Below are positions 2,564 to 15,953 of a stretch of 64,000 bases of DNA, in pieces. The DNA is from Christiangramia lutea (GTDB taxonomy: Bacteria; Bacteroidota; Bacteroidia; Flavobacteriales; Flavobacteriaceae), in NCBI RefSeq assembly GCF_022489035.1, contig NZ_JAKVTV010000006.1:62001-126000 (forward strand), given 5' to 3'. The notes under the pieces were generated by a model that was given only the letters and a program-made list of their open reading frames with translations, did not search any database and had not been told where the DNA came from. Both the position numbers and the translations under genes were made by a program. Positions within the stretch are counted from its first letter, which is position 1. Every line of letters begins with the position of its first letter.

Positions 2564-2830
2564 ATCCGAAGATGATTTGAATTTTAAAAATTACTTCGTA
2601 AATTTATTATGTTGTAATTTGGTAAAACGATAACACGAAGGCTAACTGAATATGCGTTTGTATATTGGTTAGCCTTTTTTGTTTTTGAGTTTTTTTTCTA
2701 TGTATGAAAATTCTTTCCAAATTTTGTTAATATCGTATTGATAATTCAATCCTAAAAATCTATTCTAGAGCAAATTGTAATAACGATAATTCCTAAATTA
2801 TCATTGTTTTAACAATTTAAAATATAAGAT
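2564..2830. other. Intergenic gap holding a second hairpin-plus-T terminator
   Basis: No credible coding frame. The main feature is a long hairpin: GGCTAAC (2640-2646) pairs with GTTAGCC (2668-2674), an inner AATAT/ATATT extends the stem, and six T residues follow (2675-2680) with more T-rich sequence. It lies about 75 bases beyond the first terminator and 150 bases before the next gene. It could be a backup terminator, or the 3' end of a small RNA whose promoter I cannot identify. The remainder up to 2770 is AT-rich and featureless. Confidence 0.45.
2775..2806 (+). promoter_or_regulatory. Possible promoter of hybrid regulator gene
   Basis: TTG at 2775-2777, a 21-base spacer and TATCATTG at 2799-2806 give a one-mismatch match to the flavobacterial TTTG/TAnnTTTG promoter. 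The gene start is 24 bases downstream of the box. Confidence 0.3.
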
Positions 2831-5800
2831 TTGGGGCATTTTAAATTTAAAATTCTGCTTTTCCTGGTGATTCTTTCAGGAAGCAGCAGTAGTTCTTATG
2901 GTCAAACCACGGTATCTGCTCAAAAAATACAGGCGATAGATGCCTTTCTCAAAGCTGAAGAGGTTCATATACAAAAAGATCAAGAAGAAAACCTTTGGAT
3001 CACGACGCCGGTAAAGGTAACGAGGTATAATTCTGTAGAGGTTCAGGATTATAATAAATTCCGCGGCATGCCTACGGAAATAGGGAAAGATTACCAGGGA
3101 ACCTATTCAGATTCAGAGAATAATATCTGGGTCTATGCTGAAAAGGGTCTCGCTATATTCCAGCCCGGGAAAGACAGTTTTGAATTCGTTAGCGATATCA
3201 CGGGAAAGATTTATTCCATGCGTGAAGATTCAGGTAATCAACTCTGGATCGCTGCCGAAAACGGAGTTTTTAAACTAAATATAGACTCAGATAAGAAGGA
3301 TTTTGGTATTTCAAGGTTCCTTTCTGAAAATACTATGGCAGTAGATATTGCCCTTTTCAATGATAAAATAATCTTTGCCGGTCCCAACGGTATTCTTAGT
3401 ATAGACAGGCGTTCAGGTAAATTTAAGAAGGTAGATATGGGATATTTCCAGGATCTGCCAATTACCACGGTGGAAGCCGTAGGGGGTAACATCCTGGTCG
3501 GGACAAATGGTAAAGGTCTTTTCAAAATTGACTCCGACCTTAACAATTTTCAAAAAGTATATACTCTTCCTGCCCAATTCGGGAATAAGAAAATAACCGG
3601 GATGGAATTTTTGTATGATGAGGTTTTACTTTCAATAAAAGGTTCAGGAATAGCGAGACTGGATAAGAATCTTGCTTATATCCCTGTAAATAATAAATTC
3701 CCGGACGATATCTATAGTATTTATCTTGATGATAGCAATCTGCTGTGGATGGTTGCCAGAGAAGGATTGTTCCTGAGTAATTTTTCAGGATATGCGGTTA
3801 AGAAATTACAGAATGATCCTGCAAGATATTCAAGCCTGGCTAATGATTTTGTAACAGCGGTAGAAACGGACTCAAAGGGTTCAGTTTGGTTTGGAACTGC
3901 TGATGGGCTTAGCATTTGGGACACCAGGACCGATAGATGGCGACATATAAAAAACCTGAATTTCAAACGAAATTTTGAAGATCCAGATGAGATCACAGAT
4001 CTGGTAGCCGCTGGTGATCATATGTGGATTGCTACTGCCAATGATGGTGTTTATAAGATCAATATCCATACACTTTTAAGAGCACATTATTCTACAGATG
4101 CTTTATATAAAACGAAGATTAAGGCTGCGAATACGGTTTTCACAGATGCTGGGGAAAATGTTTGGATAGGAGGAAACGATGGATTTTTAACCAGGATTTC
4201 TCCAAATAACCAGATAAAGAATTATCCCTTGATAGAGGTTCAGGCCATTGGCGAATTAGGTCCGAAAAAGATAATTATCGCGACAAGATCAAGGGTTCAT
4301 TCGCTTGATCCTTATTCGGGCCGTATTACCGATCTTGAAAAACTCAATGCAAATAGCGAAATGGATTATTATGCCGTTAATGACCTGAAGATTACCCACT
4401 CCGGGATCGGCTTATTTGCGACAAAAGGAGCTGGTTTGATCAGCTATAATTTCAAAACAGAAGAAATTACTGTTCTAAATAAACAAAATGCCCTGCCCAG
4501 CAATAATATCAATGGGATCGAATTGGATGATAATAGTGGATATTGGCTCACTTCAGATAAAGGCCTTGTTTTTTACAATTCTGAAGATGAAAATGTAAAG
4601 CTTTATTCTGAATTACATGGATTGTCTTCAACCGAAATCAATACAGCTTTCGCTAAGCTGGAAAATGGAGCCATGGTTTTTGGAGGTAGTAAAGGGGTCA
4701 ATATTTTTAAACCTAAAACTATGCTCGCGCAACAGGACTTTAAACCTAGACTTGAGTTGAGGTCCTTTACGGTGCCAAAAGAAAAGAATAATGGAAATGA
4801 AAATATTGATCTTGCGGTTAACAGGCAGGTAGAAATCGATGAGAATTCAGGTTTCAGGATAAATTTTGCCGGGATCTCCCATCTGGCTCCTGATTCTATA
4901 CTGTATTCCTGGAAACTTACTGGTCTGGAAGAGGAATGGAGCAAACCAATACCAGTTAATCATGCAAACTATGCGAATCTGGCTCCTGGAAATTATACTT
5001 TTCTTGTGAAAGCAAAACTGGTAGATTCTGGTTGGACCCAGCCGGAATCTATTGATCTAAATGTTGCAGGATTAGGAAGTTCCGTTAGCAGCGTTTATTT
5101 GTTTATGGGAATCAGCGTACTGGCCATGGTCGCAATTTTTGTCGTGGTGTTCATAAAAAGATCCCGAAATGCCGATAAGGCAGCTAGAGAAGAGTTGCGC
5201 CAGAATCTGCAAAAAGAATTTAAACAACCGGTGGAAAGTGCCGTAAAATCCCTGAATAAGATCTCTGCAGAGGCGCTTAAGGGAGATCCGGAAGATCTTC
5301 AACGATACGCCGCGAGATTCGATGATCTATTCAACCAGATACTCAATTTTAATTACCAGGGTTCAGTTTATGAGATCTCAAAGATTAATCTTGAGGTACA
5401 TATTCCGAAAGTGCTGGATGAGATAAAGCCGGTTTTCAAGAGCAGGGACCTGGAAGTAATCCTTAACAATCAGTGGGGAGGATCTGAATTTTACTATAAC
5501 CTGGAGTTACTGGATAAGGTCATCTTCAGCATGATCTCAGGTAGTGCGGGCTACACCAATAATAAGGCTAAGATAATTCTTAACCTTATCGAAACCAATA
5601 TAGGAGATCTTAAAATTCAGGTGACCGATAATGGAAGAGGTATACCCGAAAATGATCTTAAGGTTATTGAAAAGAAAAGATCTATCAATACTACCAAAAG
5701 GCTAAGGGATAAAAGTGGTCTTAGATATATTATCAAAGCCAAAGAGCTGATACTCGAGGCAGGTGGAAGCTTTTCTTATGAAACTGAATTAAATGAAGGC

Positions 5801-6691
5801 TCTACATTTACTGCTGTAGTAAAGAATCGAAAGGGAGATTACAGAAAAGTTCCGGAAAGAGCTGCCTCCATTCTTAAAAAAGAAAGTATTAGGCCAGTTA
5901 CGGAAACAAAAGTTCTACCCGGTATCAAAAATCTAAGCGAGTGTAAAATCCTTATTATTGAAAATGAATTAGAGAGCAGGGAATTGCTGGTAAATGAAAT
6001 TGGCAAATATTGTCAGGTATATCAGGCTGTTTCAGCTGAAGAAGGCCTGGATAAAGCAGGAATGATCTTTCCAGATATTATTATTTCAGCTGCAATGTTT
6101 CCAGATATGAACGCGGTTCAGCTTTCAAAAATGCTCAAAAGAAATACAGGCTTAAATCATATCAATATTTTTCTCCTTGCAGAACAGAACCAGGCCATTC
6201 ATGACCTTCAATTAGAGGAGATTTCAATAGTTATAAAAAAACCGATTGATATGAATCTTCTGCTTGGTAAGCTTACCGAAGTATTGAACTGGCAAAAGGA
6301 TCTGAGAAAAAGTTTCGTTCAATCGTATATAGATCATACCAAACCTGAATTTCGCAGTGAAAGGGATAAGAAGTTCATCCAGGATCTAACTGATAGGACT
6401 ATTCAGAATATCAAAAATGAAAGTTTTTCTGTTCATGACCTAAGCTCGGCACTTGGAGTTAGCAGTAATACTTTATTCATGAAGCTCAAAAGTCTGGTAG
6501 ACCTGTCTCCGCAGGATTTTATGGAGTTTACGAGATTGAACTACGCGAGGGATCTAATGGAGCATACAGATATGAATGTGATGGAAATTGCTTATAAATC
6601 TGGATTCTCAAGCCCGAGTATCTTTTATGAGTCTTATAAAAAATTTTATGGCTACAGTCTAACTGAAGCAGTAGATAAAGATTCAGAATAA
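2831..6691 (+). CDS. Hybrid two-component-like regulator (propeller, pseudo-kinase, pseudo-receiver, AraC HTH)
   Basis: A 1286-residue HTCS-type one-protein regulator. Order: signal peptide (1-25); two-component-regulator propeller repeats (about 40-640); Y_Y_Y domain (about 685-745); membrane segment (about 755-776); HisKA/HATPase region (about 785-1010); receiver (1038-1145); AraC-type helix-turn-helix (about 1180-1280). Key residues are lost. The phosphoacceptor His of the usual SHEFRTP motif is Lys795 in QKEFKQP. The N-box Asn is Gly904. The receiver phosphoacceptor Asp is Ala1087 (IIISAAMFP). The G1 Asp933 and receiver Lys1137 remain. Signalling through His-Asp phosphotransfer therefore looks impossible, although the domain layout is intact. 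The start is TTG at 2831 because an in-frame TAA lies two codons upstream. HTCS proteins usually sense glycans and switch on nearby genes; the convergent alpha-glucan operon is a candidate target, but nothing in the sequence proves it. Confidence 0.9.
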   Translation: MGHFKFKILLFLVILSGSSSSSYGQTTVSAQKIQAIDAFLKAEEVHIQKDQEENLWITTPVKVTRYNSVEVQDYNKFRGMPTEIGKDYQGTYSDSENNIWVYAEKGLAIFQPGKDSFEFVSDITGKIYSMREDSGNQLWIAAENGVFKLNIDSDKKDFGISRFLSENTMAVDIALFNDKIIFAGPNGILSIDRRSGKFKKVDMGYFQDLPITTVEAVGGNILVGTNGKGLFKIDSDLNNFQKVYTLPAQFGNKKITGMEFLYDEVLLSIKGSGIARLDKNLAYIPVNNKFPDDIYSIYLDDSNLLWMVAREGLFLSNFSGYAVKKLQNDPARYSSLANDFVTAVETDSKGSVWFGTADGLSIWDTRTDRWRHIKNLNFKRNFEDPDEITDLVAAGDHMWIATANDGVYKINIHTLLRAHYSTDALYKTKIKAANTVFTDAGENVWIGGNDGFLTRISPNNQIKNYPLIEVQAIGELGPKKIIIATRSRVHSLDPYSGRITDLEKLNANSEMDYYAVNDLKITHSGIGLFATKGAGLISYNFKTEEITVLNKQNALPSNNINGIELDDNSGYWLTSDKGLVFYNSEDENVKLYSELHGLSSTEINTAFAKLENGAMVFGGSKGVNIFKPKTMLAQQDFKPRLELRSFTVPKEKNNGNENIDLAVNRQVEIDENSGFRINFAGISHLAPDSILYSWKLTGLEEEWSKPIPVNHANYANLAPGNYTFLVKAKLVDSGWTQPESIDLNVAGLGSSVSSVYLFMGISVLAMVAIFVVVFIKRSRNADKAAREELRQNLQKEFKQPVESAVKSLNKISAEALKGDPEDLQRYAARFDDLFNQILNFNYQGSVYEISKINLEVHIPKVLDEIKPVFKSRDLEVILNNQWGGSEFYYNLELLDKVIFSMISGSAGYTNNKAKIILNLIETNIGDLKIQVTDNGRGIPENDLKVIEKKRSINTTKRLRDKSGLRYIIKAKELILEAGGSFSYETELNEGSTFTAVVKNRKGDYRKVPERAASILKKESIRPVTETKVLPGIKNLSECKILIIENELESRELLVNEIGKYCQVYQAVSAEEGLDKAGMIFPDIIISAAMFPDMNAVQLSKMLKRNTGLNHINIFLLAEQNQAIHDLQLEEISIVIKKPIDMNLLLGKLTEVLNWQKDLRKSFVQSYIDHTKPEFRSERDKKFIQDLTDRTIQNIKNESFSVHDLSSALGVSSNTLFMKLKSLVDLSPQDFMEFTRLNYARDLMEHTDMNVMEIAYKSGFSSPSIFYESYKKFYGYSLTEAVDKDSE

Positions 6692-14743: not shown

Positions 14744-14966
14744 TCTATTTTTTTAGGTTCTTGAATTACCAGAATCTTAAATTTAATAAACTGAATTCGA
14801 AATTCGATCATATTCATGAACTTGTTTAATTTTTTGACAATTAATTAAGGTTTAGGTGTTTATATGATTAGTATAAGCTGATAAATCTTGGTGTTTTCAT
14901 TAAAAATTAGGAATTTAGATTAAGCCCTGAGAATTTTTGATTTGAAAACAACCAAAAATCATACAT

Positions 14967-15953
14967 ATGAAAATAAGCAAATTAAGTTCGTTATTTCTCC
15001 GGGTCTTCCTTTTAAGTTCTGTCTTTTCACTGGCTGTTGCATGTCAGGATAACAAGAAAAAGGACACCGATGAGAAAAGTGAAACTGCAACTGAAGAAAA
15101 AAAGGTAAAAGAGGAATCACCTTTAGATTTGGTTACCATAGTTACGAACGCAATGGAATTTAAAACCAAAGAAGATTGGACCTCTGGGTGGAAAACAGTT
15201 AGATACAGGAACAACTCTAACGAGACACATTTTATTCTTTTTGATAAATATCCGGAAGGTAAAACCATAGAAGATGCCGAAAAAGAGGTTGGTCCTGCGT
15301 TCCAGGAAGGTATGGATTTAATTGCCGCAGGAGAAATGGAAAAGGCAAACGAGGCTTTTGGGAAACTACCGGAATGGTTTCAGCAGGTTGAGTTTACAGG
15401 AGGAGTAGGTTTAATCTCTCCCAAAAGCACAGCTCAGTCAACTTTTTATCTTGAACCAGGAACTTACGTGATCGAATGTTATGTGAAAATGGCCAACGGA
15501 GTATTTCATAATACCCAAGGCATGGCCATGCAAATTAACGTTTCTGAAGCAGATAGTTCTGCGGTAGATATTCAGGAAGATTATAATATTTCTATATCTG
15601 CTAATGAAGGGATTACTTTTAACGAAAGATTCTCGCCAGGAGAAAAGGTCTTTAAAGTGAATTTTGGAGAACAGAAAGTTCATGAAAATTTTGTAATGCA
15701 CGACGTACACCTTGTTCGTACTGAAGATGGAGCAGATATGTCTAAGCTGAATAGCTGGTTAAACTGGGCAGATCCAAACGGATTTAAGACTCCTGCACCG
15801 GAAGGATTTAAATTTCTGGGAGGGATGCAGGAAATGAAAGAGGGCGGAACAGGTTATTTTACAGCTGAGCTAAGACCGGGTAATTATGTGCTGGTTTCAG
15901 AAATACCAGATCCTGAAAGTAAAGGTATGCTCAAAACTTTTACCGTAAAATAG
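14967..15953 (+). CDS. Lipoprotein with one cupredoxin-like and one degenerate copy
   Basis: A 328-residue lipoprotein: hydrophobic signal peptide with lipobox AVAC (Cys26), then a charged low-complexity linker (27-52). Residues about 55-195 have the spacing of a type I copper protein. His88 sits in NNSNETHF, and PGTYVIEC-(x9)-H-(x4)-M gives Cys171, His181 and Met186. Residues about 200-328 look like a second, degenerate copy: the end reads PGNYVLVSE with a final GM (320-321) but without Cys or the same His. I know no named family for it. Copper binding or electron transfer at the membrane surface is inference from ligand spacing. It is a single gene between the alpha-glucan and glycerol clusters. 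Confidence 0.75.
   Translation: MKISKLSSLFLRVFLLSSVFSLAVACQDNKKKDTDEKSETATEEKKVKEESPLDLVTIVTNAMEFKTKEDWTSGWKTVRYRNNSNETHFILFDKYPEGKTIEDAEKEVGPAFQEGMDLIAAGEMEKANEAFGKLPEWFQQVEFTGGVGLISPKSTAQSTFYLEPGTYVIECYVKMANGVFHNTQGMAMQINVSEADSSAVDIQEDYNISISANEGITFNERFSPGEKVFKVNFGEQKVHENFVMHDVHLVRTEDGADMSKLNSWLNWADPNGFKTPAPEGFKFLGGMQEMKEGGTGYFTAELRPGNYVLVSEIPDPESKGMLKTFTVK

What the first reader, a model, noticed from the sequence alone, without database searches (positions are those of the whole stretch)
2831..6691. Hybrid two-component regulator that has lost both phosphorelay residues
The full HTCS domain order is kept, but the HisKA acceptor His is Lys795, the N-box Asn is Gly904 and the receiver Asp is Ala1087. 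The AraC DNA-binding domain and the propeller sensor look intact, and the 1286-codon frame is undamaged, which argues against simple decay. It suggests a signalling route through conformational change only, coupling a periplasmic sensor to DNA binding without phosphate.
Basis: partly seen in the sequence, partly recalled or inferred. Interest (0 to 1): 0.72.

Follow-up and report, generated by a model that had tools for sequence, protein, structure and literature searches.

The report
Phosphate-free relative of hybrid two-component regulators
A membrane regulator of marine Christiangramia bacteria has lost the key residues needed to pass phosphate, yet evolution keeps it intact beside genes that build a glycogen-like store, so it probably signals by changing shape alone.

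Summary
ORF 2831-6691 (1286 aa) has the full HTCS layout with Lys795 for the HisKA His, Gly904 for the N-box Asn and Ala1087 for the receiver Asp. This is fixed, not decay. Of 24 genus genomes (Christiangramia), 24 carry an undamaged ortholog and 24 of 24 lack all three residues; 35 of 35 other HTCS-type hybrids found in the genus keep them. The nearest relatives found outside the genus (15 genomes) keep all three, and 12 of 15 sit before SusC-SusD-GH3 genes. One loss on the genus stem explains the tree. The dead domains are under purifying selection; the dead DHp is the best conserved domain.

Most of the remaining receiver switch is gone too, but the His, Asp and Lys by which Bacteroides HTCS receivers hold the DNA-binding domain are invariant (24 of 24), and the recognition helix is re-tuned in all. 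In 23 of 23 testable genomes the gene faces GH31-GlgB alpha-glucan genes, with maltokinase-GlgE in 16. Best reading: a phosphate-independent transmembrane one-component regulator, probably of that operon and/or itself. Conformational signalling and target are inferred, not shown. New variant of a known kind; BT4236 (His to Gln) is a published partial precedent.

The parts
2831..6691 (+). Degenerate HTCS (pseudo-HTCS), 1286 aa
   Evidence: Full-length ortholog in 24 of 24 genus genomes, 43-67% identity for the other 23
2831..4840 (+). Signal-peptide-like start and propeller sensor (aa 1-670)
   Evidence: Reg_prop in 24 of 24 members; solved sensor chains 4a2l, 3v9f, 3ott match the profile (that these are HTCS sensors is read from their entry names). 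Signal peptide judged by eye
4889..5062 (+). Y_Y_Y domain (aa 687-744)
   Evidence: Pfam E 2e-13, 24 of 24
5093..5155 (+). Transmembrane helix (about aa 755-775)
   Evidence: Hydrophobic stretch read by eye; no topology program was run
5162..5380 (+). Pseudo-DHp (aa 778-850); Lys795 at 5213-5215 replaces the phosphoacceptor His
   Evidence: mean identity within genus 74%, highest of the domains compared
5381..5830 (+). Pseudo-CA (aa 851-1000); Gly904 at 5540-5542 replaces the N-box Asn, G2 box largely lost, G1 box kept
   Evidence: Pfam HATPase_c E 2.2e-8
5936..6286 (+). Pseudo-receiver (aa 1036-1152); Ala1087 at 6089-6091 replaces the phosphoacceptor Asp
6158..6160 (+). His1110, receiver side of the HTCS receiver-DBD contact
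   Evidence: Invariant 24 of 24; role from PMC11253607
6365..6367 (+). Asp1179, DBD side of the same contact
   Evidence: Invariant 24 of 24
6371..6670 (+). AraC-type DNA-binding domain (aa 1181-1280), with contact residue Lys1218 at 6482-6484
   Evidence: HTH_18 E 3.8e-15; K1218 invariant 24 of 24; recognition helix S1212, N1213 in 24 of 24 against R, T in 15 of 15 sisters
2723..2830 (+). Conserved upstream block of the gene, possible own promoter/operator
   Evidence: Alignable in 24 of 24 orthologs; its core has no second copy within 2 mismatches in the own genome
6762..14743 (-). Convergent alpha-glucan genes: GH31, GlgB, maltokinase-like, GlgE
   Evidence: NCBIfam (the maltokinase model is 20 bits below its cut-off), Pfam; GH31-GlgB face the pseudo-HTCS in 23 of 23 testable genomes
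14819..14846 (-). Conserved element upstream of the alpha-glucan operon, candidate operator (unproven)
   Evidence: 18 of 24 genomes at 0-1 mismatch, one such copy per genome

Best explanation
It is a membrane-spanning one-component transcription regulator that descends from a canonical HTCS. On the stem of Christiangramia the kinase and receiver chemistry was lost once, and the protein was fixed beside alpha-glucan genes (GH31-GlgB, often maltokinase-GlgE). Shown here: loss of His, Asn, Asp and most of the Thr/Tyr switch in the orthologs; purifying selection on the dead domains; unchanged length and domain order; invariant receiver-DBD contact residues; a re-tuned but conserved recognition helix; conserved neighbourhood. 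Inferred: the periplasmic propeller binds a ligand, probably a glucan-type saccharide; the dead DHp-CA dimer serves as a conveyor; the pseudo-receiver holds the AraC domain through H1110-D1179/K1218 and lets go, or turns it, when the stalk moves; the targets are the facing alpha-glucan operon and/or its own promoter. Phosphate independence I hold at about 0.9; ligand-driven conformational switching about 0.55; the alpha-glucan operon as target about 0.5.
For: 24 of 24 genus orthologs full length with no stop and 24 of 24 without H, N and D. Control: 35 of 35 other HTCS-type hybrids of the genus found keep H, N and D. Nearest outside relatives 15 of 15 intact. Single origin: the 24 form one side of a branch (SH-aLRT 100) of length 1.44. 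Within-genus identity DHp 74, CA 66, REC 65, AraC 69, propeller 56%. In the three closest pairs (L030/L031/L032) omega is 0.07-0.09 overall, 0.20-0.26 in DHp, 0.10-0.13 in CA, 0.09-0.19 in REC. H1110, D1179, K1218 24 of 24; these are the contact residues that hold the DBD off in Bacteroides HTCSs (PMC11253607, sections 7, 8, 10 and part 1 of 11 read). GH31-GlgB faces it in 23 of 23 testable genomes; none of 20 GH31 loci of other genera has an HTCS next to GH31.
Against: No expression, binding or phosphorylation data. The contact motif is not perfect: first residue N (also N in 14 of 15 sisters, S/C in the Bacteroides consensus) and Pro replaced in 23 of 24 (N 21, S 1, D 1), which could mean a loosened clasp. 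Compared with the sister clade the pseudo-receiver and AraC domain are less conserved (65 against 76%, 69 against 77%) although the propeller is more conserved (56 against 48%), so constraint on the output half may be partly relaxed (depths of the two groups not matched). DHp omega is higher than elsewhere in the L030-L032 pairs. The genes converge rather than share a promoter. The candidate operator before the alpha-glucan operon is missing at 0-1 mismatch from 6 of 24 genomes that keep the regulator, and a matrix of the sister operator does not support it. AlphaFold models were weak (pLDDT 58 and 64) and say nothing about domain orientation.
Confidence: 0.5

Rival explanations
1. Unswitched membrane-tethered DNA binder: the protein binds its operator constitutively as a dimer held together by the DHp, and acts as a fixed repressor or activator whose only control is its own expression.
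For: Changes at the first two residues of the S/CHIP motif raise DNA binding without phosphate in BT4124 and BT4663 (PMC11253607, section 10 read); here the Pro of that motif is replaced in 23 of 24. The TTG start (20 of 24 by my nearest-start rule) and the conserved upstream block fit control by expression level. The receiver is less conserved than in the sister clade.
Against: The large propeller is kept at full length in 24 of 24; a constitutive binder would not need it. H, D and K of the contact are invariant.
Confidence: 0.22
2. DivL-like pseudokinase: it senses or scaffolds another, active signalling protein (a phosphorylated response regulator or a partner kinase in a heterodimer), so phosphate still enters, but in trans.
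For: DivL and the ChrS pseudokinase work this way (PMC5361649 abstract and section 6 read; PMC9491836 abstract read). The G1 box is kept 24 of 24.
Against: In the own genome no other match to this protein spans kinase and AraC parts; the next best is a 30-bit AraC-domain hit. Other kinases were not surveyed, and one 22.5-bit match to aa 845-1119 (L007) was not followed up. The receiver lacks the usual acceptor.
Confidence: 0.12
3. Phosphorylation persists at another residue.
For: H857 and D1082 are invariant.
Against: H857 lies after DHp helix 2 and is also common in intact sisters (11 of 15); D1082 is also the rule in intact receivers (13 of 15 sisters, 27 of 35 paralogs). Within aa 785-806 only 2 of 24 have a His, both at 806. 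The N-box Asn is gone in 24 of 24.
Confidence: 0.05
4. A decaying pseudogene.
For: Catalytic residues lost; long stem branch.
Against: No stop in 24 of 24 and one open frame of near-constant length; omega well below 1 in every domain that could be estimated; conserved neighbourhood.
Confidence: 0.02

Closest known systems
Canonical HTCS of Flavobacteriaceae uptake loci (sister clade here, e.g. L044/L064)
   Same: Same domain order and length, 29-33% identity over the whole protein, AraC domain 48% identical on average, same receiver-DBD contact residues
   Different: Keeps His, Asn, Asp, Thr, Tyr in 15 of 15; 13 of 15 sit directly before SusC-SusD, 12 of 15 with a GH3; recognition helix SRT against mostly SSN here (gene names checked by Pfam on one locus)
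BT4236 of Bacteroides thetaiotaomicron (HTCS with Gln848 for His)
   Same: HTCS that lacks the phosphoacceptor His; its authors suggest a phosphorylation-independent mechanism
   Different: Reported in one sentence (PMC11253607, discussion part 1 read) with motif CSIP-EK; no loss of the Asp or N-box is mentioned there, and I did not have its sequence
DivL and other bacterial histidine pseudokinases
   Same: HK fold kept, His replaced, role other than phosphotransfer
   Different: DivL has Tyr and modulates another kinase, CckA (PMC5361649, abstract and section 6 read); that it has no fused receiver-AraC output is recalled
Bacterial pseudo-receivers / atypical response regulators (ChxR, HP1043, NblR, BldM)
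   Same: Receiver fold without the need for phosphorylation, DNA-binding output
   Different: Separate response regulators, not fused to a transmembrane sensor and dead kinase (names from the listing and passages of PMC12632262; architecture partly recalled)
SusR-type transmembrane regulators (recalled)
   Same: Glycan sensing joined to a DNA-binding domain without a kinase
   Different: Recalled only; no sequence compared here

Membership tests
Hybrid two-component system (HTCS) | Propeller + Y_Y_Y + TM + HisKA/HATPase + receiver + AraC in one chain | tested here: met
   Reg_prop, Y_Y_Y, HATPase_c, Response_reg, HTH_18 in 24 of 24 at E up to 1; DHp by alignment only, TM by eye
Hybrid two-component system (HTCS) | Phosphoacceptor His in HisKA | tested here: not met
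   0 of 24
Hybrid two-component system (HTCS) | N-box Asn for ATP-Mg binding | tested here: not met
   0 of 24
Hybrid two-component system (HTCS) | Receiver phosphoacceptor Asp | tested here: not met
   0 of 24
Hybrid two-component system (HTCS) | S/CHIP-DK receiver-DBD contact motif | tested here: inconclusive
   H, D, K 24 of 24; first residue N 24 of 24; Pro in 1 of 24
Hybrid two-component system (HTCS) | Gene beside a SusC/SusD locus | tested here: not met
   Immediate window neighbours are cbb3-oxidase assembly genes and alpha-glucan genes; GH31 faces it in 23 of 23 testable genomes
Bacterial histidine pseudokinase | HK fold with the catalytic His replaced | tested here: met
   loss of activity itself not assayed
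Pseudo-receiver (PsR) | Recognised receiver fold lacking key phosphotransfer residues | tested here: met
   Response_reg match and receiver fold; Asp 0 of 24, Thr 4 of 24
Transmembrane one-component regulator | Ligand in periplasm changes DNA binding without phosphate | not testable with these tools
   Needs biochemistry

The most novel reading that the evidence does not exclude
A whole hybrid phosphorelay was turned into a purely mechanical transmembrane regulator: the dead kinase became a conveyor and the dead receiver became a clasp on the DNA-binding domain, and the protein was moved from control of glycan uptake to control of storage alpha-glucan synthesis, so that an outside sugar signal sets glycogen-like metabolism without phosphate.
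Probability: 0.4. Interest if true: 0.75.

Novelty: new variant of a known kind. Interest (0 to 1): 0.6.

Why it matters
[quoted passage not shown] abstract passage seen). Here is a genus-wide natural experiment: an HTCS clade with the phosphate chemistry removed and the receiver-DBD contact residues kept, beside an intact sister clade at about 31% identity. It would allow a direct test of whether HTCS sensing needs phosphate at all or whether the contact can be released by conformation alone, and it may link an outside sensor to storage alpha-glucan metabolism rather than to an uptake locus.

Tried and rejected
Misalignment of the three columns: rejected with 50 intact comparators and a solved chain. 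Decay: rejected. A wider spread of the degenerate form: none found at the thresholds used. In 397 family genomes at E 1e-100 only two own-genus genomes of the sample and 15 intact relatives matched; 0 of 6 genomes of the genus with the closest GH31 matched at E 1e-60; in 395 order genomes, with the most divergent member as query at E 1e-120, only the own genome and three intact ones matched. These are samples with only two candidates scored per genome, so a rare outside copy is not excluded. The genome-contig scan used short exact peptides and found only five Christiangramia loci.

Operator hunt: a block before the alpha-glucan operon (TTAATTGTCAAAA, 5 nt, AACAAGTT) occurs once at 0-1 mismatch in 18 of 24 genomes (hits at 2-3 mismatches are about as common as for the reversed control). 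Its place before the operon was checked for 17 of these 18; G020 lies on a small contig and was not checked. With up to 4 substitutions it was found in 0 of 20 GH31 stretches of other genera and, weakly, in 2 of 15 sister stretches. It shares the half-site TTTTGACAAT with the conserved susC promoter block of the sister clade, but that 10-mer alone is expected 0.64 times in the window; the 14-mer is expected 0.02 times but was chosen after seeing both. A matrix of the full sister site, built from 10 of 13 promoters, one of them misplaced by my rule, scores this place at noise level (1.5, second in the window; self scores 45-58, 13.6 for the misplaced one). Six genomes lack the element. I keep it only as a lead. 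The core of the block before the gene itself has no second copy within 2 mismatches in the own genome.

Structure: AlphaFold of the cytoplasmic part (pLDDT 58) and of receiver-DBD (pLDDT 64) used 6 of 24 orthologs, because the tool names only window sequences and loci from certain tools as allowed; domain orientation could not be judged. The solved HTCS chain 12aw is not among the 50 rows shown by either fold search, which says nothing either way.

Literature: (71 and 80 returned no paper). No listing showed a paper on this family; most subscription journals are not held.
Full report
WHAT WAS CHECKED. The ORF at 2831-6691 encodes 1286 aa from a TTG start without internal stops. Pfam recognises the propeller, Y_Y_Y, HATPase_c, a sub-threshold receiver and the AraC HTH, but no HisKA. 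The genus is Christiangramia, from the titles of four named strains and one metagenome-assembled genome (that it was formerly Gramella is recalled).

THE THREE COLUMNS. I aligned the protein with its genus orthologs, with the nearest relatives from other genera, and with other HTCS-type hybrids of the genus. The 15 relatives from other genera (15 genomes of 397 family genomes searched at E 1e-100) keep His, Asn and Asp in 15 of 15. The 35 listed non-orthologous hits with E from 2e-68 to 5.8e-30 keep them in 35 of 35; weaker or partial hits were not examined, and one search scored 27 candidates or fewer per genome, so this is not every HTCS of the genus. The 24 genus orthologs (own genome included) lack all three in 24 of 24: position 795 is K in 19 and Q in 5, 904 is G in 21, A in 2, S in 1, and 1087 is A in 21, T in 2, G in 1. 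A solved HTCS receiver-DBD chain, 12aw_A, gives the same placing of A1087.

MORE IS LOST THAN WAS REPORTED, AND SOME IS KEPT. The second acidic residue of the receiver (D in 1 of 24), the switch Thr (T in 4 of 24) and the beta5 Tyr (Y in 2 of 24) are mostly gone; the Lys is kept in 20 of 24. In the kinase the G2 box is changed while the G1 box D-x-G-x-G is invariant. In the DNA-binding domain S1212, N1213, F1216 and S1261 stand in 24 of 24 where the sister clade has R, T, Y and N in 15 of 15. So the recognition helix has changed and been held since.

NOT DECAY. No ortholog has a stop. Mean within-genus identity is 74% in the dead DHp, 66% in the dead CA, 65% in the dead receiver, 69% in the AraC domain and 56% in the propeller. 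Against this, within the sister clade the receiver (76%) and AraC domain (77%) are better conserved and the propeller (48%) less, so the output half of the pseudo clade may be somewhat relaxed. In the three closest pairs (dS about 0.3) omega is 0.07-0.09 overall and at most 0.26 in any domain; some estimates for other pairs failed in the script, probably from saturation, which I did not look into. A quick maximum-likelihood tree of 24 pseudo, 15 sister and 6 of the 35 paralogs puts the 24 on one side of a branch of support 100 and length 1.44; the tool warned of long branches and rooted at the midpoint. One loss on the genus stem, followed by constraint, is the simplest account.

THE CONTACT THAT SURVIVED. 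Gao, Wu and Stock (PMC11253607; abstract, sections 7, 8, 10 and part 1 of 11 read) propose from predictions and mutations that Bacteroides HTCS receivers hold the DNA-binding domain through an S/CHIP motif in the alpha3-beta4 loop and a D and a K in the DBD, and show that substitutions there raise DNA binding without phosphate. By spacing (39 residues between D and K in BT4124 numbering) and by alignment these are N1109-H1110-I1111-N1112, D1179 and K1218 here. H, D and K are 24 of 24; the first residue is N in 24 of 24 and in 14 of 15 sisters; Pro is kept in 1 of 24. I read this as a contact that is still used although its phosphate trigger is gone; the loss of Pro may have made it easier to open. 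This is inference. The same paper notes in one sentence that BT4236 has Gln for the His and may be phosphorylation-independent, so the idea of a phosphate-free HTCS is in print.

NEIGHBOURHOOD. Downstream and convergent lie GH31, GlgB, a maltokinase-like protein and GlgE. In 22 of 22 fetched genus loci GH31 faces the pseudo-HTCS, with 77-194 nt between match ends in 21 and 782 nt in one; with the window this is 23 of 24 genomes, the last lying on a 5-kb contig that ends too early. GlgB follows in all 23, maltokinase and GlgE in 16 of 23 within the stretch fetched. In 20 GH31 loci from other genera none has an HTCS next to GH31; L100 has an unrelated HTCS with intact motifs eight ORFs away, and L109 a 464-aa ORF with a weak match that I did not examine. 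The intact sister genes lie directly before SusC and SusD in 13 of 15, with a GH3 in 12 of 15 (clusters; identities checked by Pfam on L064 alone). So loss of catalysis goes with a change of neighbourhood from an uptake locus to storage-glucan genes.

CIS ELEMENTS. The stretch before the gene is conserved in 24 of 24 and runs through the start codon. The stretch before the alpha-glucan operon holds a conserved element in 18 of 24 genomes. Neither is shown to be bound by this protein; details and the failed matrix test are under Tried and rejected.

MECHANISM AND VERDICT. Shown: fixed, selected loss of the phosphotransfer residues in a whole clade, kept architecture, kept contact residues, kept neighbourhood. 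Inferred: ligand sensing, conformational transmission, DNA targets. Novelty: a new variant of the HTCS kind; by its defining chemistry it is not a member of HTCS proper, but it derives from it and probably works like a transmembrane one-component regulator.

Noticed in passing
2831, and upstream 2723-2850: The TTG start is conserved (20 of 24 by the nearest-start rule) and the DNA around it (GATTTGGGGCATTTTAAATT) is conserved through the first codons, even in the 43%-identical ortholog, which hints at an overlapping regulatory element.
   Followed up: partly
14744-14966: The divergent intergenic region between GlgE and an unnamed 328-aa gene (14967-15953, no Pfam match at E 0.001) carries a genus-conserved element that shares TTTTGACAAT with the susC promoters of the intact sister clade.
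   Followed up: partly
L062-L076: Promoters of susC behind the intact sister HTCSs share a long conserved block (about TTTTGACAATaaatAAACCtTTTGTGATG) upstream of a TAnTTTAG-like box; it looks like an HTCS operator (13 promoters aligned).
   Followed up: partly
L026 and L027: Two species have nearly identical cytoplasmic halves (82-100% per 50 aa after residue 800) but a divergent sensor half (62-88% up to residue 750), which suggests recombination or fast change of the sensor.
   Followed up: no
own genome G000: No other match to this protein in the window's own genome spans kinase and AraC parts, while several other species of the genus have such HTCSs. A 22.5-bit kinase-receiver match that reads through a stop (L007) was not looked at.
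   Followed up: no
L079, L082, L090-L094: Seven genus species have GH31-GlgB beside the regulator but no maltokinase or GlgE within the stretch fetched; in L079 and L082 the upstream element lies before GlgB.
   Followed up: partly
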